Shown here piece by piece: positions 4,666 to 21,171 of a stretch of 64,000 bases of DNA (positions are counted from its first letter, which is position 1; each line of letters opens with the position of its first letter). The position numbers were made by a program, and so were the translations under genes. The stretch is from Rubrivivax sp. (lineage in GTDB: Bacteria; Pseudomonadota; Gammaproteobacteria; Burkholderiales; Burkholderiaceae_C). The notes under the pieces are model-generated. The model ran no database searches. It was not told the DNA's origin and was given only the letters and a program-made list of their open reading frames with translations. The stretch lies in assembly GCA_020852865.1 (NCBI GenBank), contig JADYZZ010000026.1, forward strand, positions 62,001 through 126,000. Direction: 5' to 3'.

Positions 4666-5495
4666 ACACCGGCGCCGCGGCTGTGCCCGGGCCCGCGGCC
4701 CGCGCGCTCATCGCCGAGGACGAGCCGCTGCTGGCCGCCGGGCTGGCGGCCGAACTCGCGGCGCTGTGGCCCGAGCTCGCGATCGTCGCGCGCGTCGGCG
4801 ACGGTGCGTCGGCGCTGGCGCAGGCGCTGGCGCTGCGGCCGGATCTGTGCTTTCTCGACATCCGCATGCCCGCCATGAGCGGCCTCGATGCAGCCGCCGC
4901 GCTGGCCGAGGACTGGCCCGAGCAGGTGCCGTTCCCGCTGCTGGTCTTCGTCACCGCCTACGACGAGCATGCGCTGGCGGCTTTCGAGCATCAGGCCGTC
5001 GACTACCTCGTCAAGCCGCTGGCGCGGCAGCGGCTCGCCGCCTGTGTGGCACGCCTGCGAAGCAGACTGGCCGAGCGCGCGGCCGGCGCGGCGGCGGCGA
5101 GCGCGGCATTCGACGCCGCGCTGGCGCAGCTGCGCGCGCTCGCCGCCGCCGCGCCGGCGCCTGCCGCCGAGCGGCTGCAGCTCATCCAGGCCCAGGTCGG
5201 CGCGCTGGTGTACCTGGTGCCGATCGACGAGGTGATCTACTTCGAGGCCGCCGACAAGTACCTGCGCGTCGTCACCGCCGAGCGCGAGCACCTGATCCGC
5301 CTGTCGCTGCGCGAGCTGCTGCCCCGGCTGGACCCCCAGCGCTTCTGGCAGGTGCACCGCGGCACCGTGGTGCAGGCACGCTGCATCCGCCAGGCGCAGC
5401 GCGAGGAGTCCGGCAAGCTCACGCTCGCGCTGCACGCGCGCCCGGAAAGGCTCGGCGTCAGCCGGCTCTACGCGCACCTGTTCCGCGGCCTGTAG
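4662..5495 (+). CDS. LytTR-family response regulator, AlgR-like
   Basis: A 277-residue two-domain regulator. The receiver domain (residues ~13-135) has acidic residues EDE, the phospho-acceptor Asp in LCFLDIRMPAMSGLD, the conserved Thr in VFVTAYDEHA and the Lys in DYLVKPL. An Ala-rich linker leads to a C-terminal LytTR DNA-binding domain (residues ~175-277) with EVIYFEAADKYLRVVT and FWQVHRGTVVQ. The GTG start at 4662 overlaps the kinase stop (GTGA), showing translational coupling of a cognate pair. LytTR regulators bind direct repeats; a 12-bp tandem array begins at this gene's stop codon. AlgR relatives control pili, exopolysaccharide and other surface functions. Confidence 0.92.
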   Translation: MNTGAAAVPGPAARALIAEDEPLLAAGLAAELAALWPELAIVARVGDGASALAQALALRPDLCFLDIRMPAMSGLDAAAALAEDWPEQVPFPLLVFVTAYDEHALAAFEHQAVDYLVKPLARQRLAACVARLRSRLAERAAGAAAASAAFDAALAQLRALAAAAPAPAAERLQLIQAQVGALVYLVPIDEVIYFEAADKYLRVVTAEREHLIRLSLRELLPRLDPQRFWQVHRGTVVQARCIRQAQREESGKLTLALHARPERLGVSRLYAHLFRGL

Positions 5496-5566: not shown

Positions 5567-5770
5567 GCGCGCGCCTGCTGCGCAGCACGCACGCCGCGCG
5601 GCCTGCATGCGCCCTGGCGGGCACGCGCCGCTGCCCGACGCAGCACGGCAGGAGGCATCGCTGCCGGGCATCGCTGCCGTGGGCCGCCCGCCTACAATCG
5701 GGCCGCCTGCGCGCTCCCCGGTCGGACACCGGGTATTGCGGCGCCCGTCCATGTGCCCAGGGAGTCATTC
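5496..5770 (+). other. Intergenic region upstream of the APE-like operon
   Basis: This 275-nt stretch carries the 12-bp repeat at its left end and then GC-rich non-coding sequence. A GGGAG ribosome-binding stretch sits at about 5759-5763, ahead of the GTG at 5771. It is the most likely place for the promoter of the biosynthetic operon, but I see no convincing -35/-10 pair. Confidence 0.45.
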
Positions 5771-6082
5771 GTGTCCTCGCCGCAACCCGCATCCGCTGCC
5801 GACGTCGTGCCCGTGCCCGCCCACGGCGCGGCCGTAGAAGCCGAACTCGCGCAGCTCTTCGTCGATGCGCTGAACCTCGAGATCGCCGCCGCCGACGTCG
5901 ACCCTGCAGCGCCCTTGTTCGGCGAGGGGCTCGGTCTGGACTCGATCGACATCCTCGAAGTGGCGCTCGAGATCTCGCAGCGCTATGGCTTCCAGCTGCG
6001 CAGCGACGACGAGAACAACCAGACGATCTTCCGCAACCTGCGCAGTCTCGCCGCGCATGTCGCGGCGCAGCGCACGCGCTGA
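5771..6082 (+). CDS. Acyl carrier protein of the APE-like cluster
   Basis: A 103-residue acyl carrier protein. The phosphopantetheine attachment Ser lies in GLGLDSIDILEVALEI near residue 58, in the usual helix-II context. A second conserved part reads SLAAHVAAQ. The N-terminal ~20 residues are extra and unstructured-looking. It should carry the growing acyl chain for the ketosynthase, dehydratases and reductase encoded downstream. GTG 5771 was chosen because GGGAG lies 8-12 nt upstream and no ATG fits. It is the only carrier protein seen in the locus, whereas well-studied APE clusters usually encode two. Confidence 0.88.
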   Translation: MSSPQPASAADVVPVPAHGAAVEAELAQLFVDALNLEIAAADVDPAAPLFGEGLGLDSIDILEVALEISQRYGFQLRSDDENNQTIFRNLRSLAAHVAAQRTR

Positions 6083-6092
6083 CCCATCACCC

Positions 6093-6731
6093 ATGCGGAG
6101 TTGGCGCCCGCTCGCGGCCGCGGCAGCGCTGCTGGCCTATGCACTGGGGGCGTACCTGCTGATGGTGCACGCGCCCGCCCACCCCTGGTCGGTGGCCGTG
6201 CTCGTCGGACCGCTGCTGGGCGCAGCGGCGCTCGACGCGCTGCGCCGGCGCCACCGGCCCATGCTCGCAGGCTGCGCCGCGGCGACGCTGGCGCTCGCGC
6301 TGCTCGTCGCGCACGGCGGCGTGCCCGACCTGCAGCGCCTGTACGTGCTGCAGCACGCCGGCGTGCACCTGGCACTGGCCGGCACCTTCGCAGCCACGCT
6401 GCGGCCGGGCCGCACGCCGCTGGTGACGCGCCTGGCGCAGCGCGTGCACCTGCACTTCACGGCGGCCATGGCCGCCTACACGCGCCGGCTCACGGCGGCC
6501 TGGGTCGTTTACTTCGTCGCCATGGTCGGCGTGTCGGTCACGCTCTACGCGTGCGCGCCGTGGCGCTGGTGGTCGCTGTTCGGCAACCTGCTCACGCCGC
6601 TGGCAGCCGCGGCCTTCTTCGTCGTCGAGTACGGCTGGCGCTGCCGACGCCACCCAGAGTTCGAGCGCGCGTCGCTCGGCGCAGCCTGGCAGGCCTGGCG
6701 CGCGCGCCCGCCGTCGGGCGCCGTGCGATGA
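6093..6731 (+). CDS. Integral membrane protein, COG4648-like
   Basis: A 212-residue membrane protein with about six predicted helices, including LLAYALGAYLLM and WVVYFVAMVGVSVTLYACA. Proteins of this kind (COG4648) occur regularly in aryl-polyene and related clusters, but their biochemical role is not established. It starts 11 nt after the carrier-protein stop, and its stop overlaps the ATG of the adenylation gene by 4 nt. It may anchor the soluble synthase enzymes to the membrane or help transfer the product; that is inference. Confidence 0.8.
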   Translation: MRSWRPLAAAAALLAYALGAYLLMVHAPAHPWSVAVLVGPLLGAAALDALRRRHRPMLAGCAAATLALALLVAHGGVPDLQRLYVLQHAGVHLALAGTFAATLRPGRTPLVTRLAQRVHLHFTAAMAAYTRRLTAAWVVYFVAMVGVSVTLYACAPWRWWSLFGNLLTPLAAAAFFVVEYGWRCRRHPEFERASLGAAWQAWRARPPSGAVR

Positions 6732-8587
6732 ATCCGTTCGCGCCGGGCGCTGCGCAGGCGCCGCCGCCATCGGCCGCTGCCTACCCGCTGCTCGCGCCGC
6801 GCGTGCTCGCCGCACCGCTGGCCTGGCGCCACGGCCGGCCGCTCGACGCCGCGCGGTTCCTCGCCGCGGCCGAGAAGCTGGCCGCGCGCCTGCCCGCCCG
6901 CGGCCGTCCGGTCAACCTGTGCCGCGACCGGCTGCTGTTCGCGCTCGGCCTGGCGGCAGCGCTGCGGCGCGGGCAGACCAGCCTGCTGCCGCCGAACACG
7001 CTGCCGGCCACGCTGCGCCAGCTTCCCGCAGGTGCCGCGCCGACCTACCTGATCGTCGACGACGCGGCCGACCTCGGTGCCGAGATGGCCGCGGTGCGGC
7101 TCGGCGACGTCGATCTGGCGGTCGAACCAGCGGCGGGCGTCGCGGCCACGCAGGCGCCGCAGCTCGACGACCGGCTCGACGCGCTGTGTCTGCTCACCTC
7201 GGGATCGACCGGTGCACCGCAGCCGCACGTCAAGCGCTGGGGCGCGCTGGTGGCCAACATCGATGCCGCTGCGGCAAGGCTGGCCGCCCTGATCGGCCGT
7301 CCCGATCTCGGCGGCCTGACGCTGCTGGCCACCGTGCCCGCGCAGCACAGCTACGGGCTTGAATCGAGCGTGCTGCTCGCCCTGCTGGGCGGCGCCGCCT
7401 TCGACGCCGGGCGGCCGTTCTATCCGGCGGACATCACGGCCGCGCTGGCACGACTGCCGCGGCCGCGCGCGCTCGTGACGACGCCCTTCCACCTGAAGAC
7501 GCTGCTCGACGCCGGCCTGGCCCTGCCGCAGGCCGACCTCGTGCTGTCGGCCACGGCGCCGCTCACGCCGCAGCTCGCCGCGCGTGCCGAAGCCGCGCTC
7601 GGTGCGCCGCTCGTCGAGATCTACGGCTGCACCGAGGCCGGCCAGATCGCGACGCGGCGCACCACGCAGAGCCGGACCTGGCTGGCCTTCGACCGGCTGC
7701 GCCTGACGCGCACGCACGATGCGGCGCTGGGCGAGCGCTTTTGCGTCGTCGGCGGCCATGTCGGTGCGCCGACGCCGCTGGCCGACGTCCTCGAGCTCGT
7801 CGACGAGACGCATTTCCGTCTGCTCGGGCGCGCCAACGACCTGGTCCACGTCGCCGGCAAGCGCAGCTCGCTGGCGCACCTGGACTTCCAGCTCAACCGC
7901 ATCCCGGGCGTCGAGGACGGCGCCTTCTGGCTGCCCGACGAGGTGCCCGGCACGGTGACGCGGCCCGTCGCCTTCGTCGTCGCACCGCGGCTCGCCGCGC
8001 GCGACATCGTCGCCGCCCTGCGGCGCGAACTCGAAGCCGCCTTCGTGCCGCGGCGCGTCGTCCATGTCGACGCGCTGCCGCGCGCGACCACCGGCAAGCT
8101 CACGGCCGACGCGCTGCGCCGCTTCGCACTCGCCACGCTCGCGCGCAGGCGAGGCCCCGCAGCGCGTGACGCCACGCACCCTGCCGGTTTCATGCCTTGC
8201 CAGGCGGGCCGCGCCGAAGACGAGGCGGCAATCACGCTGCAGGTGCCTGCCGGGCACCCGGCCTTCGCCGGGCATTTCCCGGGCCGGCCGGTGCTGCCCG
8301 GTGCGACGCTGCTCGCTTTCGTGCTCGCGGCGCTCGAGGCACGCCCGGCGCTGCGCAGCCGGCTCGCGGACCGGCTGGTCGTCGAGCAGGTGAAGTTCTT
8401 CGCCGCGGTCGAGCCGGGCAGCACGCTGGCGCTGCGCTTCGCGCCCGCAGCACGCGGCCTGCGCTTCGAGGTGAGCGCGGGCGAGCGGGCGATCGCCCGC
8501 GGTACGGTCTGCGGCCTGGGCGCGTCGGATCACGCCGGCGAGCGGGCGCGCGATCGCGCCCCGGAGCAGGCACCGGATCACGCATGA
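6728..8587 (+). CDS. AMP-dependent acyl ligase fused to a FabZ-like dehydratase
   Basis: A 619-residue two-domain protein. Residues ~30-470 form an ANL-superfamily adenylation domain with the P-loop LLTSGSTGAP, the A5 motif IYGCTEAGQ and the catalytic-Lys motif TTGKLTA. Residues ~490-600 form a hotdog dehydratase domain with HPAFAGHFPGRPVLPG, the FabZ/FabA active-site signature. The first half should activate an aryl or fatty acid and load the carrier protein. The second should dehydrate 3-hydroxyacyl intermediates. In the E. coli APE cluster these activities are separate proteins (ApeH and ApeI). ATG 6728 overlaps the previous stop. The C-terminal ~20 residues are low-complexity Asp/Arg/Ala repeats. 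Confidence 0.9.
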   Translation: MNPFAPGAAQAPPPSAAAYPLLAPRVLAAPLAWRHGRPLDAARFLAAAEKLAARLPARGRPVNLCRDRLLFALGLAAALRRGQTSLLPPNTLPATLRQLPAGAAPTYLIVDDAADLGAEMAAVRLGDVDLAVEPAAGVAATQAPQLDDRLDALCLLTSGSTGAPQPHVKRWGALVANIDAAAARLAALIGRPDLGGLTLLATVPAQHSYGLESSVLLALLGGAAFDAGRPFYPADITAALARLPRPRALVTTPFHLKTLLDAGLALPQADLVLSATAPLTPQLAARAEAALGAPLVEIYGCTEAGQIATRRTTQSRTWLAFDRLRLTRTHDAALGERFCVVGGHVGAPTPLADVLELVDETHFRLLGRANDLVHVAGKRSSLAHLDFQLNRIPGVEDGAFWLPDEVPGTVTRPVAFVVAPRLAARDIVAALRRELEAAFVPRRVVHVDALPRATTGKLTADALRRFALATLARRRGPAARDATHPAGFMPCQAGRAEDEAAITLQVPAGHPAFAGHFPGRPVLPGATLLAFVLAALEARPALRSRLADRLVVEQVKFFAAVEPGSTLALRFAPAARGLRFEVSAGERAIARGTVCGLGASDHAGERARDRAPEQAPDHA

Positions 8588-8627
8588 AGCCACGCATGAG
8601 ACCAGGCATGGGCAACATGGGCCGGGC

Positions 8628-9629
8628 ATGGGCAGCACGCGCAGCGTGACGGGCGACGAGGCCAGCGGCGCCGCCGCGCCCAGGCGCGTCGCGAGCGCAG
8701 CCGCCCACTGGTCGCTTCAACGCGAGCGCAGCAACCTGCCCGCGCTGCGGGTGATGGCCTGGATCGCGCTGCACCTGGGCCGGCGCATCGCCCGCCTCGT
8801 GCTGCTGCCCATCACCGCATACTTCCTCGTCTTCGCGCCGGCGGCGCGGCGCCACTCCAGGAGCTATCTCGCACGCGCGCTGGGCCGCCGGCCGCGCCTC
8901 GCCGACGGCTGGCGCCACGTGCACGCGTTCGCCTCGGTGGTGCTCGATCGGCTGTACTTCGTGCGCGGCGCGCTGCACGAGTTCGAGCTCGAGGTGCACG
9001 GCGGCGAGCTCGTCGGCGCGACGCTGGCCGAAGGACATGGCGCCTTCCTGCTCGGCGCGCACCTGGGCAGTTTCGAGGCGCTGCAGGCCCTGGGCGCGAG
9101 CCGGCCGCATCTGCGCGTGGCCATGGTCATGTATCCCGACAACGCGCAGCGAATCCAGTCGCTGCTGCGCAGCGTGGCGCCGGCCGCGCCGCTCACGGTG
9201 ATCGCGATCGGCCGCGCCGGCTCGACGCTGGCGATCCGCGACTGGCTCGATTCCGGCGGCCTCGTCGGCCTGCTGGGCGACCGCCTCGCGCCCACCGATG
9301 CGGCGCGTGATGCCGGGGTCCGGCGCCCTTTCCTCGGCGTGCCGGCGCGCTGGCCCGATGGCCCGCTGCGGCTGGCGCAACTGCTGCGCCGGCGCGTCGT
9401 GTTCATGGTCGGCCTCTATCGCGGCGGGCGGCGCTACGAGCTGCGCTTCGAGGAACTGGCCGACTTCCGCCGCCGCCCCGAAGACCCCGCCCAGCGCGAG
9501 CGCGCGCTGCAGCAGGCCCTCGACGCCTATGTGGCGCGGCTCGAGGCCCTCGTGCGCGAGGCGCCGTACAACTGGTTCAACTTTCACGATTTCTGGGGCG
9601 AGGAGGCCCGGGAGCCGGTGCGGAGATGA
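8628..9629 (+). CDS. LpxL/HtrB-like lysophospholipid acyltransferase
   Basis: A 333-residue acyltransferase of the LpxL/LPLAT family. The catalytic H-x4-E is in GAHLGSFEAL (about residue 144), with further family features near GGLVGLLGDRL and the C-terminal NWFNFHDFW. A single N-terminal membrane helix lies near residues 45-65. In APE clusters this family is thought to transfer the polyene to a lipid or glycolipid acceptor. It starts 40 nt after the ligase gene; the gap contains several CATG-containing near-repeats. Its stop overlaps the next ATG by 4 nt. Confidence 0.88.
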   Translation: MGSTRSVTGDEASGAAAPRRVASAAAHWSLQRERSNLPALRVMAWIALHLGRRIARLVLLPITAYFLVFAPAARRHSRSYLARALGRRPRLADGWRHVHAFASVVLDRLYFVRGALHEFELEVHGGELVGATLAEGHGAFLLGAHLGSFEALQALGASRPHLRVAMVMYPDNAQRIQSLLRSVAPAAPLTVIAIGRAGSTLAIRDWLDSGGLVGLLGDRLAPTDAARDAGVRRPFLGVPARWPDGPLRLAQLLRRRVVFMVGLYRGGRRYELRFEELADFRRRPEDPAQRERALQQALDAYVARLEALVREAPYNWFNFHDFWGEEAREPVRR

Positions 9630-10303
9630 ACCGCGCCGGCACGATCCTGTGCACGGCCGGCGGCAGGGGCGCACGGCGCCGGCTGCTCGCCGCCGCGGCA
9701 CTGGCGCTGCTGGGCGCGGCGTGCGGCGGCGGCCGGGCCCAGGCTGCAGCGGCCGCCGGCTCGTTCGACCTGGGCGCCTTGATGGCCCTGCTCGCGCGGC
9801 GCAAGAGCGGCCGCGCCCGCTTCACCGAGGAGCGCTTCGTCTCGGGCTTCGATTCACCGCTGCACAGCTCGGGGCTGCTGTCGTTCACGGCGCCCGACCG
9901 CTTCACGCGCGAGACCCTCGAGCCGCGCGCCGAGTCGATGGAAGTCGCCGGCAACCTGCTGACGCTGCGCCGCGGCGCGCGCACGCGCCAGTTGACGCTC
10001 GACGCCGCGCCCGAGGCGACGGCGCTGGTCGAGGCCCTGCGCGGCACGCTCGCCGGTGATGCGGCGCTGCTGCGCCGCCATTTCGAGCTGAACCTGGCCG
10101 GCAGCGCGGCGCTGTGGACGCTCGCGCTCGTGCCACGCGACCCGGCGCTCGCCGCGCAGGTGCGCCGCGTGCAGCTCGCCGGCCAGGGCGGCGAGCTGCG
10201 CAGCGTCGAGCTCCTGCTGGCCGGCGGCGACCGCTCGCTGATGCTGATCGATCCGCTGCCGCCCGAGGGCGGTGCGACGCCGCGGCCGAGCAGCGGCCGA
10301 TGA
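9626..10303 (+). CDS. LolA-like outer-membrane lipoprotein carrier
   Basis: A 225-residue exported protein with an N-terminal signal (RRLLAAAALALLGAACGGG, cleavage near residue 40). The LolA-like fold is recognisable from GRARFTEERFVSGFDSPLHS, GLLSFTAPDRFTRETL and a late LIDPLP. LolA family members carry hydrophobic cargo across the periplasm. In APE loci the LolA paralogue and the MMPL pump occur together, presumably for export of the polyene lipid. A cysteine after LGAA could suggest a lipoprotein, but the lipobox is imperfect. Overlaps both neighbours by 4 nt. Confidence 0.85.
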   Translation: MNRAGTILCTAGGRGARRRLLAAAALALLGAACGGGRAQAAAAAGSFDLGALMALLARRKSGRARFTEERFVSGFDSPLHSSGLLSFTAPDRFTRETLEPRAESMEVAGNLLTLRRGARTRQLTLDAAPEATALVEALRGTLAGDAALLRRHFELNLAGSAALWTLALVPRDPALAAQVRRVQLAGQGGELRSVELLLAGGDRSLMLIDPLPPEGGATPRPSSGR

Positions 10304-12741: not shown

Positions 12742-13601
12742 CCGAATTTTCGTCACCCATGCCCGATGTCCTGCTGCACCCGACGCCGCCGCGCTGGCCC
12801 TGGCCGCCGGCGCTCGCGGCCAGCGTCGGCGTGCACGCACTGGCCGCGGCCGGCGTGCTCGTCGACCCGGCGCAGGGCGCGACCGCGCTCGCCGCCGTGG
12901 CGCTGAACCAGCTCGTGCTCACCGCAGCCGGCCTGTGGCCGCGCAGCACGCTGCTCGGGCCCAACTGGCGGCGGCTGCCGGCCGCGGCCGCGCAACGCGC
13001 ACAGGTGGCGCTCACCTTCGACGACGGCCCCGACCCCGAAGTGACGCCGCGGGTGCTCGACATGCTCGACGCCGCCGGCGCGCGCGCCACCTTCTTCGTG
13101 ATCGGCCGGCGCGCGCAGGCCGCGCCCGCGCTCACGCGCGAGATCGTCGCGCGCGGACACGCGCTGGGCAACCACAGCGCCGTGCATCGGCACCATTTCG
13201 CGCTGCTCGGGCCGGGCGGCTTCGCGCGCGAGATCGGCCGCGCGCAGCAGATCCTGGCCGATGTCGCCGGCGTGCGCGCGCATTGCTTTCGTGCCCCTGC
13301 GGGGCTGCGCAACCCGCTGCTCGACCCGGTGCTGCATCGCCTCGGCCTGCAGCTCGTGAGCTGGACGCGGCGCGGCCTGGACACGCGCGACGGCGACGCC
13401 GCGCGCGTGCACGCGCGCCTCGTGCGCGGGCTCGCCGCCGGCGACATCTTGCTGCTGCACGACGGCCACGCTGCGCGCACGCCCTCGGGGCGCCCGGTCG
13501 TGCTCGCCGTGCTGCCGCCCCTGCTGAGCGCACTGCGCGCTGCGGGGCTTGCCACCGTCACCCTGGCCGAGGCGGTGCCGCTGCGGTACCCGCTGCCGTG
13601 A
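12738..13601 (+). CDS. Polysaccharide deacetylase (NodB homology, CE4)
   Basis: A 287-residue protein with hydrophobic helices in the first 65 residues and a NodB/CE4 domain after them. Motif 1 is LTFDDGPDP (catalytic and metal Asp), motif 2 is GNHSAVHRHH, and later motifs are CFRAPAGLRN and ILLLHDGH. CE4 enzymes remove N- or O-acetyl groups from sugars using a divalent metal. The gene is locked into the operon by 4-nt overlaps on both sides, so it probably acts on a sugar that becomes part of the product. GTG 12738 fits this coupling; an ATG at 12759 is the alternative. Confidence 0.88.
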   Translation: MTEFSSPMPDVLLHPTPPRWPWPPALAASVGVHALAAAGVLVDPAQGATALAAVALNQLVLTAAGLWPRSTLLGPNWRRLPAAAAQRAQVALTFDDGPDPEVTPRVLDMLDAAGARATFFVIGRRAQAAPALTREIVARGHALGNHSAVHRHHFALLGPGGFAREIGRAQQILADVAGVRAHCFRAPAGLRNPLLDPVLHRLGLQLVSWTRRGLDTRDGDAARVHARLVRGLAAGDILLLHDGHAARTPSGRPVVLAVLPPLLSALRAAGLATVTLAEAVPLRYPLP

Positions 13602-14440
13602 GTGCGATCCCGGACCTGGCCGCGAACGGGCGTGCGCAGCCGGCGCCGCAGGCCGAGGCCGCGTGGCAGGCGCTGCGCGAAGCGGCCGCCGCACCGTACC
13701 GCCGCGCCGGGCGCTTCGCCTGGCATTTCGCGCGCGGCAAGCTCGGCGGCGACCCGGTGTTCCGCGCTCTGCTCGAAAGCGGCGCGCTGGCCGGGATCGG
13801 GCCGCCCGGCGCGGCCCCGGGCGCGCCGGATGGCCCGCGACGCGGGGCGCGCGTGGTCGACATCGGCTGCGGTCAGGCGCTGCTGGCCAGCCTGCTGCAA
13901 GCCGCTGCCGACGCCGCCGAGCGCGGCCGCTGGCCCGCGGCCTGGCCGGCGGCACCGCGCACCGCGAGCTACCTGGGCATCGAGCTCATGCCGCGCGATG
14001 TCTCGCGCGCCACCAGCGCCCTCGCCGGCTGCGCCCTCGCCCCGCGCCTGGTCTGCGCCGACATGCGCCAGGCCGCGCTGCCGCCCTGCGACTTCGTGGT
14101 GATCCTCGACGTGCTGCACTACGTCGACCATGCCGCGCAGGCTGCCTTGCTCGCCCGCGTGCGCGACGCCCTGCAGGCCGGGCGACGCAGCGGCCGCCTG
14201 CTGCTGCGCGTGGGCGACGCCGCCGCAAGCTGGGGCTACCGCGCCAGCCAATGGGTCGACCGCCTCGTCACCTGGGGTCGCGGCCATCGTGCTGCACCCA
14301 CCTTCGGCCGCACGCTCGACGACTGGGTGGCGCTGCTGAAGGGGCTGGGCTTTGCCGTGCGCGCCGAGCCGATGAGCCGCGGCACGCCCTTCGCCAACAT
14401 GCTGCTCGTCGCCGACCTGTCGGCCGCGCCCGCACGCTGA
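13598..14440 (+). CDS. Class I SAM-dependent methyltransferase-like protein
   Basis: A 280-residue protein with a Rossmann methyltransferase core: motif I VVDIGCGQALLASLL, an acidic end of strand 2 at YLGIELM, then CADMRQAAL and the motif IV region FVVILDVLHYVD. The N-terminal ~85 residues are helical. It probably methylates the aromatic head group or a sugar, or may act as a non-catalytic assembly factor; the acceptor cannot be read from sequence. The GTG start overlaps the deacetylase stop (GTGA). The stop TGA shares one base with the ketosynthase ATG (TGATG). Confidence 0.78.
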   Translation: MSAIPDLAANGRAQPAPQAEAAWQALREAAAAPYRRAGRFAWHFARGKLGGDPVFRALLESGALAGIGPPGAAPGAPDGPRRGARVVDIGCGQALLASLLQAAADAAERGRWPAAWPAAPRTASYLGIELMPRDVSRATSALAGCALAPRLVCADMRQAALPPCDFVVILDVLHYVDHAAQAALLARVRDALQAGRRSGRLLLRVGDAAASWGYRASQWVDRLVTWGRGHRAAPTFGRTLDDWVALLKGLGFAVRAEPMSRGTPFANMLLVADLSAAPAR

Positions 14441-15633
14441 TGCAGCCGCTGGCCGTCACCGACTACACGCTCGTCAGCGCGCTGGGCGCCGGATGCGCGG
14501 CGAACTTCGAGGCGCTGGTGGCCGGGCGCAGCGGCCTGGCGCAGCACGACTTCGAGACCGCCCGGCTCGGCACCTGGGTCGGCATCGTCGACGGCCTGGA
14601 CGAACTGCGCCTGCCGCCGGCGCTGGCCGCCTGGGATTGCCGCAACAACCGCCTGGCGCACGCCGGCCTGCAGGCCGACGGCTTCGCCGCGCGCGTCGCG
14701 CGCGCGGCCGCGCGCTGGGGTGCGGCGCGCGTCGGTGTCTTCGTCGGCACCAGCACCTCGGGCATCCTGCACACCGAGGTCGCCTATCGCCAGCGCGACC
14801 CTGCCACCGGTGCGCTGCCGGCCTGGCTCGATTACGCGAAGACGCACAACACGGCTTCGGTGGCGCGCTTCGTGCGCGCCGCGCTCGGGCTGGCGGGGCC
14901 CGCCTTCGTCGTCTCGACCGCCTGCTCGTCCAGCGCCAAGGCATACGCCACCGCGGCGCGGATGATCGCGCTCGGCCTCGTCGACGCCGCGCTCGTGGGC
15001 GGCGTCGACAGCCTGTGCATGACGACGCTGTACGGCTTTCGTTCGCTGGAGCTCGTCGCCGACGACATCTGCCGGCCCTGGGACGCCGAGCGCTCGGGCC
15101 TGTCGATCGGCGAGGCCGCGGCCTTCGCGCTGCTCGAGCGCACGCCGCCGCCGGGCACGCCGCCGCGGGCCTGGCTGCTGGGCACCGGCGAGAGCAGCGA
15201 CGGCCACCACATGAGTGCGCCGCACCCCGAGGGCGCCGGCGCGGCGCTGGCGATGCGCGCGGCGCTGGCCGATGCCGCGCTCGCGCCCGCCGCGGTGGGC
15301 TACCTCAACCTGCACGGCACCGCGACGCCCGGCAACGACGCCGCCGAGGATCGCGCGGTGCGCAGCGTGTTCGGCACGGCCGCCGCGTGCAGCAGCACCA
15401 AGGGCTACACCGGCCATACGCTGGGTGCGGCCGGCGCGGTGGAAGCCGCGATCACGATGCTTGCGCTCGAGCAAGGCTGGCTGCCGCCGACGCTGAACCT
15501 GCGGCGGCCCGACCCGGCGCTGACGCTGCCGGTGCTGCGCACGCCGCTGGCGCGCCGCGTGCGGGTGGCGGCAAGCAACTCGTTCGGCTTCGGCGGCAGC
15601 AATGCCTGCCTCGTGCTGGGAGCGGCGGCGTGA
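14440..15633 (+). CDS. Beta-ketoacyl-ACP synthase (FabF/ApeO-like)
   Basis: A 397-residue condensing enzyme. The active-site Cys is in VVSTACSSSAKAY (about residue 166), with catalytic His residues in NLHGTATPGND and KGYTGHTLGAAG, and the C-terminal glycine motif NSFGFGGSNA. It catalyses decarboxylative Claisen condensation of malonyl-ACP with the growing chain. It is followed directly by a truncated ketosynthase-like protein, the pair expected for an APE-type KS/chain-length-factor heterodimer. It is the only complete ketosynthase in the window. The start overlaps the previous stop by one base and the stop overlaps the next GTG. Confidence 0.93.
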   Translation: MQPLAVTDYTLVSALGAGCAANFEALVAGRSGLAQHDFETARLGTWVGIVDGLDELRLPPALAAWDCRNNRLAHAGLQADGFAARVARAAARWGAARVGVFVGTSTSGILHTEVAYRQRDPATGALPAWLDYAKTHNTASVARFVRAALGLAGPAFVVSTACSSSAKAYATAARMIALGLVDAALVGGVDSLCMTTLYGFRSLELVADDICRPWDAERSGLSIGEAAAFALLERTPPPGTPPRAWLLGTGESSDGHHMSAPHPEGAGAALAMRAALADAALAPAAVGYLNLHGTATPGNDAAEDRAVRSVFGTAAACSSTKGYTGHTLGAAGAVEAAITMLALEQGWLPPTLNLRRPDPALTLPVLRTPLARRVRVAASNSFGFGGSNACLVLGAAA

Positions 15634-16442
15634 TCGAGCTCGTGCTCACCGGCGTGGGCGTCCTCGGCCCCGGGCTGCCCGACTGGACAAGCGCCGCGCC
15701 GCTTCTGGCCGCACTCGAGCCGTGGTCGCCCACGCCCACCGCGGTGCCGGCGCCGATCCGGCTGCCCGCGAACGAGCGCCGCCGCGCCGGCACGGTGGTC
15801 AAGGCCGCGCTGGCCGTGGCCGACGAGGCGGTGGCGATGGCCGCAACCGACCCGACGTCGCTCGCCACCGTGTTCTCCTCGTCGACCGGTGATCCGCTCA
15901 ACTGCCACCAGCTTTGCGAGGCGCTGGCCACGAGCGAGCGGCTGGTCTCACCGACGCGCTTCACGAACTCGGTGCACAACGCGGCTGCCGGCTGCTGGCA
16001 CATCGCCACCCACAGCATGATGCCGTCGACCAGCCTGGCCGCGTTCGACGCCAGTTTCGGCGCCGGACTGCTGGAAGCCGCCGTGCAGTGCGTGCACGCG
16101 GCGCGCCCCATGCTCCTCGTCGCCGTCGATGTGCCGTATCCCGAGCCGCTGCATGCGCTGCGGCCGCTGACCGACTGCTTCGCGCTCGCCTTCGTCGTGG
16201 CGCCGGCGCCGCCGCGCGGGCTGACGCCGGCGCCGCAACCTGGGCTGGCGCGGCTGCGCATCGGTCCGACGGACGAGCCGCAGACGCCCTGCGTCGCTGC
16301 GGCTTTCGAGCCGCTGCGGCGCTCGATTCCTGCCGCGCGCGCGCTGCCGCTGCTCGAGCGGCTGGCCGGCGGCAGCGCCGGGCGCGTCGTCGTCGAGGCC
16401 GCCGACGGCTGGCGCCTGGCCGTCGAGATCGAACCGGCATGA
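15630..16442 (+). CDS. Ketosynthase-like chain-length factor (ApeC-like)
   Basis: A 270-residue protein equivalent to only the N-terminal half of a ketosynthase (PF13723-type). It has VFSSSTGDPLNCHQLCEAL and RFTNSVHNAAAGCWHI but lacks the catalytic TACSS cysteine and the C-terminal HGT and GHT histidines. In aryl-polyene systems such a subunit pairs with the active ketosynthase and helps set chain length. The order KS then CLF, joined by a 4-nt GTGA overlap, supports heterodimer formation. It is probably not catalytic itself. Confidence 0.85.
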   Translation: MIELVLTGVGVLGPGLPDWTSAAPLLAALEPWSPTPTAVPAPIRLPANERRRAGTVVKAALAVADEAVAMAATDPTSLATVFSSSTGDPLNCHQLCEALATSERLVSPTRFTNSVHNAAAGCWHIATHSMMPSTSLAAFDASFGAGLLEAAVQCVHAARPMLLVAVDVPYPEPLHALRPLTDCFALAFVVAPAPPRGLTPAPQPGLARLRIGPTDEPQTPCVAAAFEPLRRSIPAARALPLLERLAGGSAGRVVVEAADGWRLAVEIEPA

Positions 16443-16897
16443 ACGCTGCCGGCGCCCGGCTCGATCGCGCCGGCATCGAGGCGCGTATCCCGCACCGCGG
16501 TGCGATGTGCCTGCTGCATGAGCTGCTCGACTGGGATGCCCGTGAGCTGCGCTGTCTTGTCGTCTCGCACGCCGACGCGGACCACCCGCTGCGCGAGGCG
16601 GGCCGGCTGCCCGCCGCGGCCGGGCTCGAGCTCGCCTCGCAGGCAATGGCGCTGCACGGCGCGCTGAACACGCCCGCCGAGGCGCCGCGCCGGGCCGGAT
16701 TCCTGGCCAGCGCGCGTGACCTGAGACTGCACGTGGCGCGGCTGGACGACGCCCCGGGACCGCTGGTCGTGCATGTCGTGCACCTGGCGGGCGACGGGCT
16801 GCAGGCGCTGTACGCGTTCGACATCGCCGACGCCGGCGCACGCGTGCTGCTCGAAGGCCGCGCCGCGGTGGTCTTGGACGCCGGCGCGATGCGATGA
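16439..16897 (+). CDS. Hotdog-fold 3-hydroxyacyl-ACP dehydratase (ApeP-like)
   Basis: A 152-residue hotdog protein beginning with the characteristic IPHRGAMCLLHELLDWD, the active-site segment seen in ApeP-type dehydratases. It is distinct from the FabZ-like domain fused to the ligase, so the locus encodes two dehydratases. It should convert 3-hydroxyacyl-ACP to the trans-2-enoyl product; absence of an enoyl reductase in the locus leaves the double bonds in place. It overlaps neighbours by 4 nt on both sides. Confidence 0.85.
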   Translation: MNAAGARLDRAGIEARIPHRGAMCLLHELLDWDARELRCLVVSHADADHPLREAGRLPAAAGLELASQAMALHGALNTPAEAPRRAGFLASARDLRLHVARLDDAPGPLVVHVVHLAGDGLQALYAFDIADAGARVLLEGRAAVVLDAGAMR

Positions 16898-17628
16898 AGC
16901 CGCTGCACGACAAGCGCGCGCTCGTCACCGGCGCCGGCGGGGCGCTGGGCAGCGCGATCGCGCGCCGCCTGGCGGCCGCCGGCGCGCATGTCGTGCTGCA
17001 CGGGCATGCGCATCCCGCGCGCGTGCAGCAGCTCGGCGCCGAGATCGCCGCGGCCGGCGGCAGCGCCGAGCCCTGTGTGTTCGACATCGCCGACGACGCC
17101 GCCAGCGCCGCCGCCGTGGCCGCGCTGCTGCAGCACGGGCCGGTGCAGATCGTGGTCAACAACGCCGGCGTGCACGACGACGCCGTGTTCCCCGGCATGC
17201 GGCCGGCGCAATGGCAGCGCGTCGTCGACGTCTCGCTCAACGGTTTCTTTCGCGTCACGCAGCCGCTCGTGCTGCCGATGCTGCGCACGCGCTGGGGCCG
17301 CATCGTCAACATCTCGTCGGTGGCGGCGCTGGCGGGCAACCGCGGCCAGGTGAACTACGCCGCCGCCAAGGCGGCGCTGCACGGCGCGACGAAGGCGCTG
17401 GCGCTCGAGCTGGCCAGCCGCGGCGTCACCGTCAATGCGGTGGCGCCGGGCATCGTCGATTCGCCGATGGCCGCAGCCGCGTTCGACGCCGAGGCCGTCA
17501 AGCGCCTGGTGCCGATGCAGCGCGCCGGCACGCCCGACGAGGTGGCGGCGCTCGTCGCCTTCCTCGCCGGGCCCGAGGCCGGCTACATCACCGGGCAGGT
17601 GATCTCGATCAACGGCGGCATGTACTGA
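16894..17628 (+). CDS. 3-oxoacyl-ACP reductase, FabG-like (ApeQ-like)
   Basis: A 244-residue short-chain dehydrogenase. The nucleotide-binding motif is GAGGALGSAIARRLA, with NNAG, the catalytic Ser in NISSVAAL and the Tyr/Lys pair in NYAAAKAALHG. The C-terminus, GYITGQVISINGGMY, is typical of FabG. It reduces the 3-oxo group after each condensation, probably with NADPH. It is the last forward gene of the block and converges on the glycosyltransferase gene 25 nt away. Confidence 0.92.
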   Translation: MKPLHDKRALVTGAGGALGSAIARRLAAAGAHVVLHGHAHPARVQQLGAEIAAAGGSAEPCVFDIADDAASAAAVAALLQHGPVQIVVNNAGVHDDAVFPGMRPAQWQRVVDVSLNGFFRVTQPLVLPMLRTRWGRIVNISSVAALAGNRGQVNYAAAKAALHGATKALALELASRGVTVNAVAPGIVDSPMAAAAFDAEAVKRLVPMQRAGTPDEVAALVAFLAGPEAGYITGQVISINGGMY

Positions 17629-17653
17629 ACCTGCGGGGCGTGCACCCGGCGCA

Positions 17654-18502
17654 TCACGGCTGGAACGGCGGCGCGCGGCGCGCGCGGCGCCACAGCAGCA
17701 GCGGCAGCCGCACGCAGAACTCGAGCATCAGCCGCAGATGCATCCAGGTGAGCAGCGCGTTGTCGCGCAGATAGCGGAAATGCGAGACGCCGCCCTCGGC
17801 CGCGCTCAGGTAGCGCACCGGCGCATCGACGTTGATCGGCTTGACGCCGCGCCAGGCCAGCCGCACGACGGCCTCGGTATCGAAGTCGAAGCGCCGCATC
17901 CAGCGCTGCGCACGCATCACGGCCACGAGCGGCGCGAGCGGGTAGACGCGAAAGCCGTAGAGCGAATCGGCCACGCCTGCGCCCAGCGTCTCGAGGTTGG
18001 TCCACCAGTTCGAGACCCGCCGCCCGCGCACGCGCAGCAGCGGCGCGCTGGCGTCGAACACCGGCCGGCCGAGGATCATCGCCTCGGGGCGCGCGGCCGA
18101 GCGCTGCATGAAGGCGGCGATCAGCCGCGCCGGGTGCTGGCCGTCGCTGTCCATCGCCAGGGCATGCGTGAAGCCGCAGCGCGCGGCCTCCTCCAGGCCG
18201 TGCAGCAGCGCCGCGCCCTTGCCGTGGTTGACCGGCAGCACGAACACGCGCAGGCCGCTGTCGCGCGCGGCCAGCGCCTGCAGTTGCGCGGGCGTGCCGT
18301 CGCGGCTGCCGTCGCACACCACCCACACCGGCGTCCAGGCCGCGCGCGCCTCGGCCACGGTCTCGAGCACCTTCGCTCCGGTGTCGTAGCTCGGGATCAG
18401 CACGAGGTGTGTGCGCGAAGCAGGCACCACGCCGGCCCCTGCCCCGCTGCCTGGCGCCGGCTCGGCCGCGCAGGGCCCGCCCGGCTGCGGCGCGGCGCTC
18501 AT
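17654..18502 (-). CDS. Family 2 glycosyltransferase
   Basis: A 282-residue GT-A glycosyltransferase. LVLIPSYDTGAKV and WVVCDGSRDGT form the nucleotide-sugar site, ALAMDSDGQHPARL carries the D-x-D metal motif, and a C-terminal amphipathic helix follows (LRLMLEFCVRLPLLLWRR). Relatives occur in APE and flexirubin-type loci beside acyltransferases and are expected to glycosylate the lipid carrier. The ATG at 18502 overlaps the stop of the upstream acyltransferase by 4 nt, so the reverse block is a coupled operon. Confidence 0.87.
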   Translation of the reverse strand: MSAAPQPGGPCAAEPAPGSGAGAGVVPASRTHLVLIPSYDTGAKVLETVAEARAAWTPVWVVCDGSRDGTPAQLQALAARDSGLRVFVLPVNHGKGAALLHGLEEAARCGFTHALAMDSDGQHPARLIAAFMQRSAARPEAMILGRPVFDASAPLLRVRGRRVSNWWTNLETLGAGVADSLYGFRVYPLAPLVAVMRAQRWMRRFDFDTEAVVRLAWRGVKPINVDAPVRYLSAAEGGVSHFRYLRDNALLTWMHLRLMLEFCVRLPLLLWRRARRAPPFQP

Positions 18503-19245
18503 GCGCGACTCGAGCGCGCAGCGGCATCGGCGCGGAAGTAGGCCTCGATCTCGCGCGTGAGCGCTTCGTGATCGGCGCGCGGCTCGAAGCGCCGCCCCAG
18601 GCGCACGCCGAAGCGGATCGGCAGCGGCGGCAAACGCCACAGCGGCCAGCCCTTGCCGAGGTAGGGCGAGTCGGTGTCGATGAACAGGGTCTGGATCGGC
18701 GCGTGCGCGTGCTTGGCAATCAGCGCGAAACTCGGATGGAAGGCGTTGAGCGGAGGCGACGTCGTGCGCGTGCCCTCGGGAAACATCACGAGCTGGCCGC
18801 CGGCGCGCAACTCGGCGACCGCGCCGCGCACCATCGCGTGCGCCGAGTCGTTCGGGATGTAGCGCGCCAGCTTGGCGCCGGCCCCGAGGAAGGGGTTGTG
18901 CAGCAGGCTCGACTTCATGATGCAGAAGGCGCGCGGCAGCCGTGCGACGAGCAGCATCGCGTCGAGCAGGCTCGGGTGGTTCGCCACCAGCACGAGCCTG
19001 GGTTCGTCGGCCAGCGGCGCCAGCGCATCTTGCTCCAGGCGCAGAAGGCCGAAGGGCCGCGTGAACGCCCAGTAGCCGCGGTAACCCCAGGCGATGCCGG
19101 CGCGGCCCGCACGCCGCCCGCGCTCGCGCCCGAGCAAGGGGTACAGCAGCAGCGCGCCGAGATTGAAGCCGAGCGACACCAGTGCCAGCGCCAGCAGCTG
19201 CAGCTGCAGCGCCAGCCAGGCCGCCGCGGCCGGCGCTGCGCTCAC
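18499..19245 (-). CDS. PlsC-like 1-acyl-glycerol-3-phosphate acyltransferase
   Basis: A 248-residue LPLAT protein. A hydrophobic N-terminal helix (WLALQLQLLALALVSLG) is followed by motif I, VANHPSLLDAM (H-x4-D), and motif III, VMFPEGTRT. It should acylate a lysolipid or glycolipid, possibly with the polyene. The start is taken as GTG 19245, whose GTGA overlaps the end of a 21-codon reading frame that itself overlaps the MipA-like gene. A longer open frame to 19410 exists but lacks family-like sequence. Confidence 0.82.
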   Translation of the reverse strand: MSAAPAAAAWLALQLQLLALALVSLGFNLGALLLYPLLGRERGRRAGRAGIAWGYRGYWAFTRPFGLLRLEQDALAPLADEPRLVLVANHPSLLDAMLLVARLPRAFCIMKSSLLHNPFLGAGAKLARYIPNDSAHAMVRGAVAELRAGGQLVMFPEGTRTTSPPLNAFHPSFALIAKHAHAPIQTLFIDTDSPYLGKGWPLWRLPPLPIRFGVRLGRRFEPRADHEALTREIEAYFRADAAARSSRA

Positions 19246-19307
19246 GCACCGGCCCTCCGCGCCGCACGCGACGCGGTGCGCGCTCGCGCAGGCGCCGGCG
19301 CGCTCAT
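19242..19307 (-). CDS. Possible 21-residue coupling micro-ORF
   Basis: A 21-codon frame with an ATG at 19307 overlapping the MipA-like stop (ATGA) and a TGA overlapping the GTG of the acyltransferase gene (GTGA). The peptide, [13 protein letters not shown] then RAARRAGA, is basic and has no known family. Its only notable property is exact 4-nt overlap at both ends, which would carry translating ribosomes between the two larger genes. It may be chance in a GC-rich stretch. Confidence 0.3.
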   Translation of the reverse strand: MSAPAPARARTASRAARRAGA

Positions 19308-20140
19308 GGCGCCGCGCGCTGCGCCGAGGCAGCGAAGATCCAGGCCAGGCCGACGCCGAAGGAGACGTCGTCGCGCCGACGCACGAGCGGGCTTGCCTCG
19401 AACGCGGCACCGGCCAGCGTGTCGACGCGAACGAACGCTCCGAACCAGAGCGAGGCGTCGCGCCGCGTCGCGCTCAGCGTGCCCTGCCAGCCTGCGCGTC
19501 CGGCGGCGGCACGCCAGGCGGGCCGCGCCGCCGTGGCGTAGGCAGACGCGACGTCGTAGTAGTAGGCGTGCAGCCGCCGGTCGCCGGCCAGCGCCGCGAG
19601 CTGGGCGCCGAAGTTCCATTGCCGCGAACGCAGGTCGAGATTGAGGTTCGGCGCGACGCTCCAGCCGATGTGCTGCGGCGTACCGCGCAGCGTGAACACG
19701 GCGCGCACCGGCAGGCGCAGCTCGAGCTTCCAGTCGGCCGCGCGCGCGAGCACCAGGCTCGCGTTGGGTCCGAGTTCCACCGTGGGGGCGAGGTCGGGCA
19801 TGCCGGCGCGCGCGTCGCTCGAGCGGCTCGCCGTCGGCGGGCTGGCGGTGGCGCTGAGATCGATCTCGAGGCGCTCGCCGTCGACGAGCATCGCGCGCGC
19901 GCCATCGCGGTCGGCGCGCAGCACGCGGCCGCGCAAGGCCAGATAGGGCATCGGCAGCAGCCAGTTGCGCGACTGATCGGCGCCTCGGTAGTAGGGCAGC
20001 CGCAGTGCGGCGGCGCCCAGGCCCAGCTCCCACAGCGGGGCATCGGCCAGCGCCGGCGCGGCCGCGCCGACGGCAAGGGCGGCCAGCGTCTGGCGCGCCC
20101 GCTGCGCCAGAGGGCGACGGAGCCGGCGCCTCACCGTCAT
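19304..20140 (-). CDS. MipA/OmpV-family outer-membrane protein
   Basis: A 278-residue exported beta-barrel protein. The signal peptide runs to about residue 32 (LAALAVGAAAPALA, then DAPLWELGLGAAA). The mature start WELGLGAAALRLPYYRGADQ and LLPMPYLALRGR are hallmark MipA/OmpV sequences, and the chain ends with an amphipathic strand, VSFGVGLAWIFA. Alternating hydrophobic strands are visible throughout. MipA-type proteins occur as murein-synthesis scaffolds or outer-membrane porin-like proteins; here the context suggests a role in surface display or export. ATG 20140 gives the best signal peptide; an in-frame GTG at 20173 is less likely. Confidence 0.82.
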   Translation of the reverse strand: MTVRRRLRRPLAQRARQTLAALAVGAAAPALADAPLWELGLGAAALRLPYYRGADQSRNWLLPMPYLALRGRVLRADRDGARAMLVDGERLEIDLSATASPPTASRSSDARAGMPDLAPTVELGPNASLVLARAADWKLELRLPVRAVFTLRGTPQHIGWSVAPNLNLDLRSRQWNFGAQLAALAGDRRLHAYYYDVASAYATAARPAWRAAAGRAGWQGTLSATRRDASLWFGAFVRVDTLAGAAFEASPLVRRRDDVSFGVGLAWIFAASAQRAAP

Positions 20141-20397
20141 CGGCGCGCGAACGCGAGCCGCCTGCCCACGCACGCTCGGCTCGGGGCAGCGCCCACGCCG
20201 CCGCGCAGGCGCCGCCGGGCAGCGGCGCCGGCGGCATGGCAGGATCGGACAGCGTTCATGCGGGGAAACGAATCGCCAGCATCGCGATCCGGGATGTTAG
20301 CTTGCGTGCCGCCCGCGCCCTGCCCCGGCGCCGTGCGCGCAAGGCCCTGGCCGCCCGCGCTGCCCGCAAGGGCCGGCGCCGCGGCGCCGCCAGACGA

Positions 20398-21171
20398 TCA
20401 GGCGGCCGGGCGACGCGCCACGTACTCGGAGAAGATGCCCAGCGAGACCTCGCGCCGCGCTTCGGCCAGGCCGGCACGCGCGAGCGCCGCCAGCACCTCG
20501 GCCGGCGAGATGCAGGCTTCGATCGTGTCCCAGTAATAGCGCCACAGCAGTGCCGTATCGCGGCGGCGCGCGACCAGCCGCGCCAGCGCCGGCACGACGC
20601 CGCGCATGTAGGCCTTGAGCAGCACCTGGCCGAGGGCGCCCGCCGGGCGGGTGATTTCCAGCACCAGCAAGCGCCCGCCCGGTCGCAGTACGCGGCGGAA
20701 TTCGGCAAACGTGGTGTCGACGTCGTCGATGTGGCGCAGCGCGTAGCCCATGCAGAGGAAGTCCACGCTCGCATCGGGCAGCGGAATCGCCTCGGCGCGG
20801 CCGACCAGCAGCCGCGCGCCCTGCAAGCGGGCCTTGCCCATCATGCCCGGACTGGGGTCGACACCGACCACTTCGCCCGCGGGCCCGACGAGGGCCAGCG
20901 CCTCGCGCGTGAGCAGGCCGGTGCCGCAGCCGACGTCCAGCACCTGCATGCCGCTGCCCAGCCCGGCGCGCGCGAGTGCCTGCCGCCGGTACCAGCGCCC
21001 GCTGCCCAGCGCGAGCACGCCCTCGACGCGGTCGTAGTCGACCGCGGTGTCGTCGAAGATGCGCTGCAGGAAGCGCCGATGCTCGACCTCGTCGCCGTAA
21101 TACGCCGGCAAGGGGCGGTGCGGACGCAGCCCGCCGCTCACGGCAGCAGGCGAAGGCGCGATCGGATCCAT
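20398..21171 (-). CDS. UbiE-like SAM methyltransferase
   Basis: A 257-residue class I methyltransferase. VLDVGCGTGLLTREAL is motif I, VVGVDPSPGMM marks the acidic strand-2 end, and YALRHIDDVDTTFAEFRRVLRPGGRLLVLE resembles UbiE/COQ5. The N-terminus FDDTAVDYDRVEGVLALGSGRWYRRQAL is also UbiE-like, but the C-terminus differs from true UbiE. The gene opens the reverse block, 257 nt upstream of the MipA-like gene, so it may be transcribed alone or with it. A role in methylating an aromatic head group fits the context, but a ubiquinone role cannot be excluded. Confidence 0.8.
   Translation of the reverse strand: MDPIAPSPAAVSGGLRPHRPLPAYYGDEVEHRRFLQRIFDDTAVDYDRVEGVLALGSGRWYRRQALARAGLGSGMQVLDVGCGTGLLTREALALVGPAGEVVGVDPSPGMMGKARLQGARLLVGRAEAIPLPDASVDFLCMGYALRHIDDVDTTFAEFRRVLRPGGRLLVLEITRPAGALGQVLLKAYMRGVVPALARLVARRRDTALLWRYYWDTIEACISPAEVLAALARAGLAEARREVSLGIFSEYVARRPAA

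What the first reader, a model, noticed from the sequence alone, without database searches (positions are those of the whole stretch)
5771..21171. Compact aryl-polyene-like locus with one ketosynthase, one carrier protein and no starter gene
The sequence shows a KS followed by a truncated KS-like chain-length factor, a ketoreductase, two dehydratases, an adenylation domain, a LolA/MMPL pair, two LPLATs, a GT2 and two methyltransferases, in two facing operons. Established APE clusters such as E. coli ape normally have two carrier proteins and additional ketosynthases. Here I find only one of each and no ammonia-lyase or chorismate-lyase gene for the aromatic starter. The product could be a shortened or differently primed polyene.
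Basis: partly seen in the sequence, partly recalled or inferred. Interest (0 to 1): 0.7.

Follow-up and report, generated by a model that had tools for sequence, protein, structure and literature searches.

The report
Ordinary xanthomonadin-type pigment gene cluster
This is a normal-looking set of genes for a yellow xanthomonadin-like membrane pigment, of a known type that can work with one chain-building enzyme pair and one carrier protein; the only loose end is where this bacterium gets the aromatic building block.

Summary
The gene list is right; the baseline was wrong. Window 5771-21171 is an intact aryl-polyene locus of the xanthomonadin/arcuflavin type, not a cut-down E. coli-type ape cluster. 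Gene content matches the arc loci of Azoarcus BH72 nearly one for one. One KS, one half-length chain-length factor and one carrier protein also make up the Lysobacter set and an Azospirillum plasmid locus with the same facing operons. KS and CLF match the solved ApeO:ApeC pair; the KS falls on the ApeO side of the tree; the genes compared are under purifying selection. It is compact next to its kin: 20 of 30 related loci carry a second KS, 16 with its CLF. The starter gap is real: XanB2 occurs in 19 of 31 selected KS-carrying genomes and 0 of 10 without, but not in this genome or its two nearest relatives, which also lack UbiC though UbiA is present. E. coli ape has no starter gene either, but E. 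coli has UbiC. The aromatic acid comes from an unidentified source. Product length cannot be judged from sequence.

The parts
3487..4665 (+). histidine kinase (arcW-like position)
   Evidence: PF06580/PF02518; a kinase and regulator also precede the ACP in several relatives and adjoin the ACP gene in Azoarcus arcW/arcX
4662..5495 (+). LytTR response regulator (arcX-like position)
   Evidence: PF00072 + PF04397
5771..6082 (+). acyl carrier protein, ApeE/XanC/ArcV type, Ser58 in LDSID
   Evidence: NF006617 128.5 bits over cut-off 70; 43% to E. coli ApeE; serine position
6093..6731 (+). membrane protein, ApeG/ArcU-like
   Evidence: weak match to E. coli ApeG, E 2e-5; ArcU by position only
6728..8587 (+). 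fused adenylating enzyme (ApeH/ArcT) and thioester dehydratase (ApeI/ArcS)
   Evidence: PF00501, PF13193 and a sub-threshold FabA domain; ApeH E 3e-19 and ApeI E 4e-5
8628..9629 (+). acyltransferase, equals the C-terminal half of E. coli ApeJ (ArcR position)
   Evidence: PF03279; ApeJ E 2e-42
9626..10303 (+). LolA-like carrier (ApeL/ArcQ position)
   Evidence: PF19574
10300..12741 (+). MMPL exporter (ApeM/ArcP)
   Evidence: PF03176; ApeM E 7e-26
12759..13601 (+). polysaccharide deacetylase (ArcN position)
   Evidence: PF01522
13598..14440 (+). SAM methyltransferase (ArcM position)
   Evidence: PF13489
14440..15633 (+). ketosynthase, ApeO/ArcK type, Cys162-His292-His326 in place
   Evidence: NF006618 516 bits over cut-off 407, a model that E. 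coli ApeO also passes; best solved matches 7f28_B and 6qsp_A; tree; residues
15630..16442 (+). half-length chain-length factor, ApeC/ArcJ/ORF16 type
   Evidence: PF13723; solved matches up to E 1 are only 7f28_A and 6qsp_B; model matches 6qsp_B first
16439..16897 (+). hotdog dehydratase, ApeP/ArcI type
   Evidence: profile match 6qsr_B E 1e-8; model pLDDT 92, first Foldseek match 6qsr_B
16894..17628 (+). ketoreductase (ApeQ/ArcH)
   Evidence: PF13561; 44% to ApeQ
17654..18502 (-). GT2 glycosyltransferase, equals the N-terminal half of E. coli ApeJ (ArcE position)
   Evidence: PF00535; ApeJ E 1e-50
18499..19302 (-). PlsC-type acyltransferase (ApeD/ArcD); start codon uncertain
   Evidence: PF01553; ApeD E 3e-24
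19304..20173 (-). MipA outer-membrane protein (ArcC position)
   Evidence: PF06629
20398..21171 (-). UbiE-family methyltransferase
   Evidence: PF01209; NCBIfam UbiE models matched below cut-off; same family next to MipA in Azospirillum L102; not found beside the locus in G094

Best explanation
A complete aryl-polyene pigment locus of the xanthomonadin/arcuflavin type. Inferred working: the adenylating domain activates a hydroxybenzoic acid and loads it on the single ACP; the KS, paired with the half-length CLF, extends it with malonyl units; KR and the two-part dehydratase (ApeI-like domain plus ApeP-like protein) turn each step into a double bond; the aryl-polyene acid is methylated, joined to a lipid/sugar anchor by the two acyltransferases and the GT2, and moved to the outer membrane by LolA/MMPL, with MipA there. 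The kinase/LytTR pair upstream probably controls it. One KS-CLF pair and one ACP can be the whole set; the pair, or FabF/FabB, must also start the chain, and malonyl can ride on the same ACP or on AcpP. Shown here: gene identities, catalytic residues in place, KS lineage, conserved architecture, purifying selection on the genes compared. Inferred: substrate, chain length, anchor, regulation. The aromatic acid is not made by a recognisable XanB2 or UbiC in this assembly; its source is unknown.
For: Nearly gene-for-gene match with arc. Same KS/CLF-like/ACP set, with KS, ORF16, ACP and KR each needed for pigment, in Lysobacter. Xanthomonas uses a single pigment ACP. Same architecture, no starter gene within the 29 kb fetched, in Azospirillum ramasamyi; one KS, CLF and ACP in Caballeronia insecticola. 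KS and CLF match solved 6qsp, titled ApeO with ApeC, and the dehydratase matches ApeP of 6qsr. KS lies with the ApeO proteins, split from ApeR, FabF and FabB at 100/100. dN/dS 0.22-0.62 for the cluster genes compared, glnS 0.25.
Against: No product is known. XanB2, a usual part of this type, was not found, nor the halogenase-like flavoprotein kept by L041/G150. Most near relatives have a second KS, 20 of 30 loci, and 10 of 30 related genomes have a FabF-like KS within 10 kb of the cluster KS, so a single KS is not the rule in this neighbourhood. In vitro Xenorhabdus needs ApeR for initiation. The Gln essential in Lysobacter ORF16 may correspond to Q153, but that column is not invariant here (L057 and L102 differ). 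ACP, ApeG-like gene and ligase were not in the dN/dS test.
Confidence: 0.92

Rival explanations
1. One reading: a minimal locus whose missing KS, ACP and starter genes give a shortened or differently primed polyene.
For: XanB2 and UbiC not found in the genome. No ApeR-type KS or second pathway ACP. 20 of 30 related loci have a second KS, 16 of them with its CLF seen; the four others end before it could be seen. 10 of 30 related genomes have a FabF-like KS within 10 kb of the cluster KS.
Against: Single KS-CLF and ACP occur in characterised clusters and in Azospirillum. E. coli tolerates loss of ApeR and partly of ApeF. None of the 30 related loci shows two ACPs of this kind. The second KS forms its own branch with an orphan Variovorax KS, which reads as an addition in relatives.
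Confidence: 0.15
2. An E. coli-type ape cluster that lost ApeF, ApeR, ApeK and ApeN.
For: Ten of the eighteen E. coli proteins have a counterpart by blastp (ApeR, hit only by the KS, not counted).
Against: Gene content, split ApeJ, KS-CLF adjacency, deacetylase and MipA follow the arc type. In the tree the KS lies in a 53-row group (99/96) that leaves out the ApeO of five two-ACP, two-KS loci.
Confidence: 0.04
3. A decaying locus that no longer makes a product.
For: The flavoprotein present in L041 is gone; in G094 the UbiE-type gene is not beside the locus.
Against: Core genes open, catalytic residues in place, dN/dS well below 1 against both near relatives.
Confidence: 0.03
4. Priming by a cinnamate-type acid from one of three aromatic amino-acid lyases in the genome.
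For: Three PF00221 genes in G000. Ammonia-lyases sit inside the Pseudoalteromonas and Acinetobacter junii ape loci.
Against: One lyase is in a hut operon. The C60 one is closest to histidine lyases among solved chains; the C35 one was not studied further. G094 has only one. None is on the locus contig. The 4-coumarate ligase model match of the adenylating domain is shared by E. coli ApeH, whose cluster uses 4-HBA, so it is no pointer.
Confidence: 0.08

Closest known systems
arc (arcuflavin) loci of Azoarcus sp. BH72, PMC3949708
   Same: ACP, ArcU, AMP-ligase, DH, acyltransferase, LolA, exporter, deacetylase, MT, KS, half KS, DH, KR, GT, acyltransferase, MipA, and an adjoining kinase/regulator pair (Table 1; matched by annotation, no Azoarcus sequence was aligned)
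   Different: Azoarcus has two unlinked loci, XanB2 (arcB), a halogenase (arcA) and some further genes; here one locus, ligase and DH fused, no XanB2, no halogenase, plus a UbiE-type MT
Lysobacter enzymogenes yellow-pigment cluster, PMC3691225
   Same: single KS with CSSS motif next to half-length CLF-like ORF16, one ACP, two dehydratases, one KR
   Different: Lysobacter has the XanB2 homologue ORF5; sequences not aligned here
Azospirillum ramasamyi plasmid locus (L102, NZ_CP029832.1)
   Same: same core order and facing operons, one KS, one CLF, one ACP, UbiE-family MT, no starter gene in the 29 kb fetched
   Different: ligase and DH are separate genes; halogenase-like flavoprotein kept; MipA and MT on the other strand; rest of that genome not searched
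E. coli CFT073 ape cluster
   Same: homologous ACP, ligase, dehydratase, KS, CLF, KR, exporter, acyltransferases; no lyase gene
   Different: two ACPs, extra KS ApeR, thioesterase ApeK, DUF3261 ApeN, fused ApeJ, CLF apart from KS; E. coli has UbiC
Ralstonia solanacearum pig-like cluster with acpP2, PMC9542644
   Same: xanthomonadin-like cluster reported to lack xanB2; its ACP replaces Xanthomonas XanC (passages)
   Different: its genes were not compared here; that genome also has a second, ape-like cluster

Membership tests
xanthomonadin/arcuflavin-type aryl-polyene cluster | KS of ApeO lineage directly followed by a half-length CLF | tested here: met
xanthomonadin/arcuflavin-type aryl-polyene cluster | single dedicated ACP of the ApeE/XanC kind | tested here: met
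   NF006617 over cut-off; two ACPs in the assembly, one beside FabF
xanthomonadin/arcuflavin-type aryl-polyene cluster | adenylating enzyme, two dehydratases, KR | tested here: met
xanthomonadin/arcuflavin-type aryl-polyene cluster | LolA, MMPL exporter, acyltransferases, GT, MipA, deacetylase | tested here: met
   compared with the table
xanthomonadin/arcuflavin-type aryl-polyene cluster | XanB2 chorismatase in or near the cluster (usual, not universal) | tested here: not met
   none in G000; also not found in 12 of the 31 KS-carrying genomes searched, and reported missing for the Ralstonia cluster
xanthomonadin/arcuflavin-type aryl-polyene cluster | yellow aryl-polyene product | not testable with these tools
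   needs culture and mass spectrometry
E. coli-type ape cluster | second ACP (ApeF) | tested here: not met
E. coli-type ape cluster | second ketosynthase ApeR | tested here: not met
   0 of 40 genomes over the PRK09116 cut-off; its 14 control genomes gave none over it either; E. coli ApeR passes it
flexirubin cluster | dialkylresorcinol genes darA/darB with the polyene genes | not tested
   no dar model was searched in the genome

The most novel reading that the evidence does not exclude
In this lineage (and other Burkholderiales with the locus) the polyene is primed by a hydroxybenzoate from a third, undescribed source that also feeds UbiA, since UbiA is present while UbiC, XanB2 and the Rv2949c-like lyase are all undetected; the pigment would then be a non-halogenated variant.
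Probability: 0.25. Interest if true: 0.5.

Novelty: new member of a known kind. Interest (0 to 1): 0.2.

Why it matters
It corrects the expectation that an aryl-polyene locus needs two carrier proteins and ApeR-type ketosynthases, and narrows the real question to one: which enzyme supplies the aromatic acid, for pigment and for ubiquinone, in Burkholderiales in which neither UbiC nor XanB2 can be found.

Tried and rejected
Second KS in the genome. On the ApeR model G000 has 4 matches, of which three were listed: C13 (304.8 bits), C83 (303.5) and the cluster KS (168.6), all under the 470-bit cut-off. C83 is FabB. In the tree C13, C83 and the G094 C26 synthase fall with ApeR, away from the ApeO side (treekit warned of long branches there). 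The G094 C26 KS stands beside an ACP and an alpha/beta hydrolase, is not an ApeR by the model, and is 53% identical to a FabF-like KS near the locus in L064; G000 has no such extra ACP. What this KS does is unknown.

Divergent UbiC. A relaxed PF04345 search (E up to 10) gave nothing in G000, G094 or G150 and only scraps in 3 of 12 genomes. The Rv2949c-like model gave 0 of 17. Neighbours of ubiA in eight genomes showed no obvious chorismate-lyase candidate by eye; that is a weak test.

Literature. Six searches. Rubrivivax + arylpolyene gave one unrelated paper. For 4-HBA supply in these bacteria only listings were seen, and no paper was opened. PMC8776678 (Acetobacteraceae survey, passages) reports aryl-polyene clusters with a probable halogenase but was not needed. 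Names arcA-X come; 'AcpP', and that 7f28 is an Ape pair, are recalled.

Rows and labels. The 41 genomes are 30 of the 40 KS-positive genomes (the ten weakest hits, E 2e-82 or worse, were left out), 10 of its 110 KS-negative ones, and G150. G150's kinship to the window is not told by the tool; it is nearest in the KS tree. In one search my KS2 set wrongly held one FabF-like row (L064 17840), which explains its 2 changes; 67 of 70 rows were used (duplicate L042 and two partial copies dropped).

Structure. The CLF model is weak at 87-125 (pLDDT below 50), and its TM-score to 6qsp_B is only 0.60-0.67.

Full report
What is there. The window is C26:62001-126000 of a 4.19 Mb, 102-contig assembly, 95.7% complete. 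The named loci with the most similar KS genes are Burkholderiales or unplaced proteobacterial genomes, many labelled Rubrivivax, with Piscinibacter, Leptothrix, Inhella and Aquabacterium. All genes of the finding are present and open.

What it is. By blastp, ACP, ApeG-like protein, ligase-dehydratase, two acyltransferases, GT2, exporter, KS, CLF and KR match E. coli ApeE, G, H+I, J, D, M, O, C and Q; GT2 and the first acyltransferase are the two halves of ApeJ in separate genes. LolA and the small dehydratase found no E. coli partner by blastp at E 0.01, but carry LolA_3 and match ApeP of the solved ApeI:ApeP complex by profile and by fold. Among solved chains the KS finds 7f28_B and 6qsp_A first, and the CLF finds their partner chains 7f28_A and 6qsp_B and nothing else up to E 1; 6qsp is titled ApeO in complex with its chain-length factor ApeC. 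Cys162, His292 and His326 of the KS are in place.

Which subtype. The gene set is that of the xanthomonadin/arcuflavin type. Table 1 of PMC3949708 (abstract and sections 18, 21 and 22 read) lists for Azoarcus BH72 the same components, including deacetylase, MipA, half-length KS and a kinase/regulator pair. The Lysobacter cluster (PMC3691225, passages and sections 6 and 8) has one KS followed by an essential half-length CLF-like protein, one ACP and two dehydratases. PMC8253772 (passages) states that xanthomonadin clusters lack a second ACP. In the same paper the E. coli apeF deletion kept partial pigment and the apeR deletion kept the full lipid, while it also cites in vitro work in which Xenorhabdus ApeR is required for initiation (passages). 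Among named plasmid records, Azospirillum ramasamyi carries the same core locus in facing operons with one KS, one CLF, one ACP and no starter gene in the 29 kb fetched; Caballeronia insecticola has one of each as well. Two ACPs with two KS are seen in E. coli, Cedecea, Acinetobacter junii, Pseudoalteromonas and Cupriavidus. A tree of 67 ketosynthases puts the window KS in a 53-row group (99/96) next to five ApeO proteins and split from ApeR, FabF and FabB at 100/100. No Xanthomonas, Lysobacter or Azoarcus sequence was in the tree.

Is it decaying? Against G094 (same genus) dN/dS is 0.24-0.62 for twelve cluster genes, and against G150 (L041) 0.22-0.47 for eleven, with glnS at 0.25 in both; the ACP, the ApeG-like gene and the ligase were not compared. 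Parts have been lost, though. The halogenase-like flavoprotein that stands between MipA and the UbiE-type gene in L041 (61% identical to the L066 protein studied) has no close counterpart in G000 or G094, where the best matches reach 41 bits; and G094 has no UbiE-type gene beside the locus.

The starter. Searches covered 41 genomes: 30 of the 40 KS-positive genomes (weakest ten left out), 10 of its 110 KS-negative ones, and G150. XanB2 (PF21168) was found in 19 of 41: 19 of 31 with the KS and 0 of 10 without. In 10 of the 19 it lies within 10 kb of the KS, by comparing. G000, G094 and G150 have none. UbiC (PF04345) was found in 5 of 41, none of these three; three of the five also have XanB2. 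Twelve of the 31 KS-carrying genomes have neither. UbiA is over its cut-off in 20 of 20 genomes searched, 15 of which have neither enzyme, so 4-HBA should be needed there. The Rv2949c-like lyase was found in 0 of 17. E. coli ape lacks a starter gene too, but E. coli has UbiC, so that parallel does not settle the matter. Three aromatic amino-acid lyases exist in G000 and one in G094; one is beside urocanase, one is closest to histidine lyases among solved chains, and the third was not studied further. The starter source is unresolved; with 95.7% completeness a missed gene in G000 alone is possible, but G094 (listed 100% complete) agrees. The Ralstonia pig-like cluster is also reported to lack xanB2 (passages of PMC9542644).

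Of 30 named loci, 20 have a second KS, 16 of them with a second CLF in view and the other four ending before it; 3 are cut off near the KS (L044, L045, L051) and 7 show none within the stored flank. None of the 30 shows two ACPs of this kind. The 18 full-length second KS copies form one branch with an orphan Variovorax KS. Many of these loci also carry a halogenase-like, an esterase-like and an unknown gene between KR and GT2. In 10 of the 30 selected KS-positive genomes a FabF-like KS (238-281 bits on the ApeR model, under its cut-off) lies within 10 kb of the cluster KS. So the window locus is compact next to its kin, yet not next to the characterised xanthomonadin-type clusters.

Verdict. 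Observation confirmed, novelty not: an ordinary member of a known pigment-cluster type, with one open point, the origin of its aromatic starter.

Noticed in passing
L043, L047-L050, L052-L056, L058-L064, L067, L068, L070 (downstream of KR): A second KS, 44-51% identical to the first, with its own CLF in 16 of these 20 loci; many also have halogenase-like, esterase-like and unknown genes. Role unknown.
   Followed up: partly
G000:C42:4303-5151 and 14 other genomes: UbiA is present but UbiC, XanB2 and the Rv2949c-like lyase are not detected; the source of 4-hydroxybenzoate for ubiquinone is unexplained.
   Followed up: partly
G145, G125, G026, G032, G027, G064, G042, G098, G053, G069 (places); L064:17840-19396; L074:8246-9760: A FabF-like KS lies within 10 kb of the cluster KS in these ten genomes; the L064 (P. 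sakaiensis) one is 53% identical to a KS-ACP pair on another contig of G094.
   Followed up: partly
L101 (Variovorax paradoxus VAI-C plasmid) 13989-15194: An orphan ketosynthase with no other pigment gene in the 29 kb fetched, sister to the second-KS branch.
   Followed up: no
window 5484-5583: An imperfect 12-base tandem repeat, about 8 copies, at the end of the response-regulator gene, upstream of the ACP.
   Followed up: no
L041:7374-8789 and L042:9711-11177: In the two nearest loci a protein with phosphonate-binding and rhodanese domains sits between KR and GT2, where the window has only 25 bases.
   Followed up: no
G000:C60:54088-55548 and C35:5336-6820: Two aromatic amino-acid lyases besides the one in the hut operon; G094 has only one lyase in all.
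   Followed up: partly
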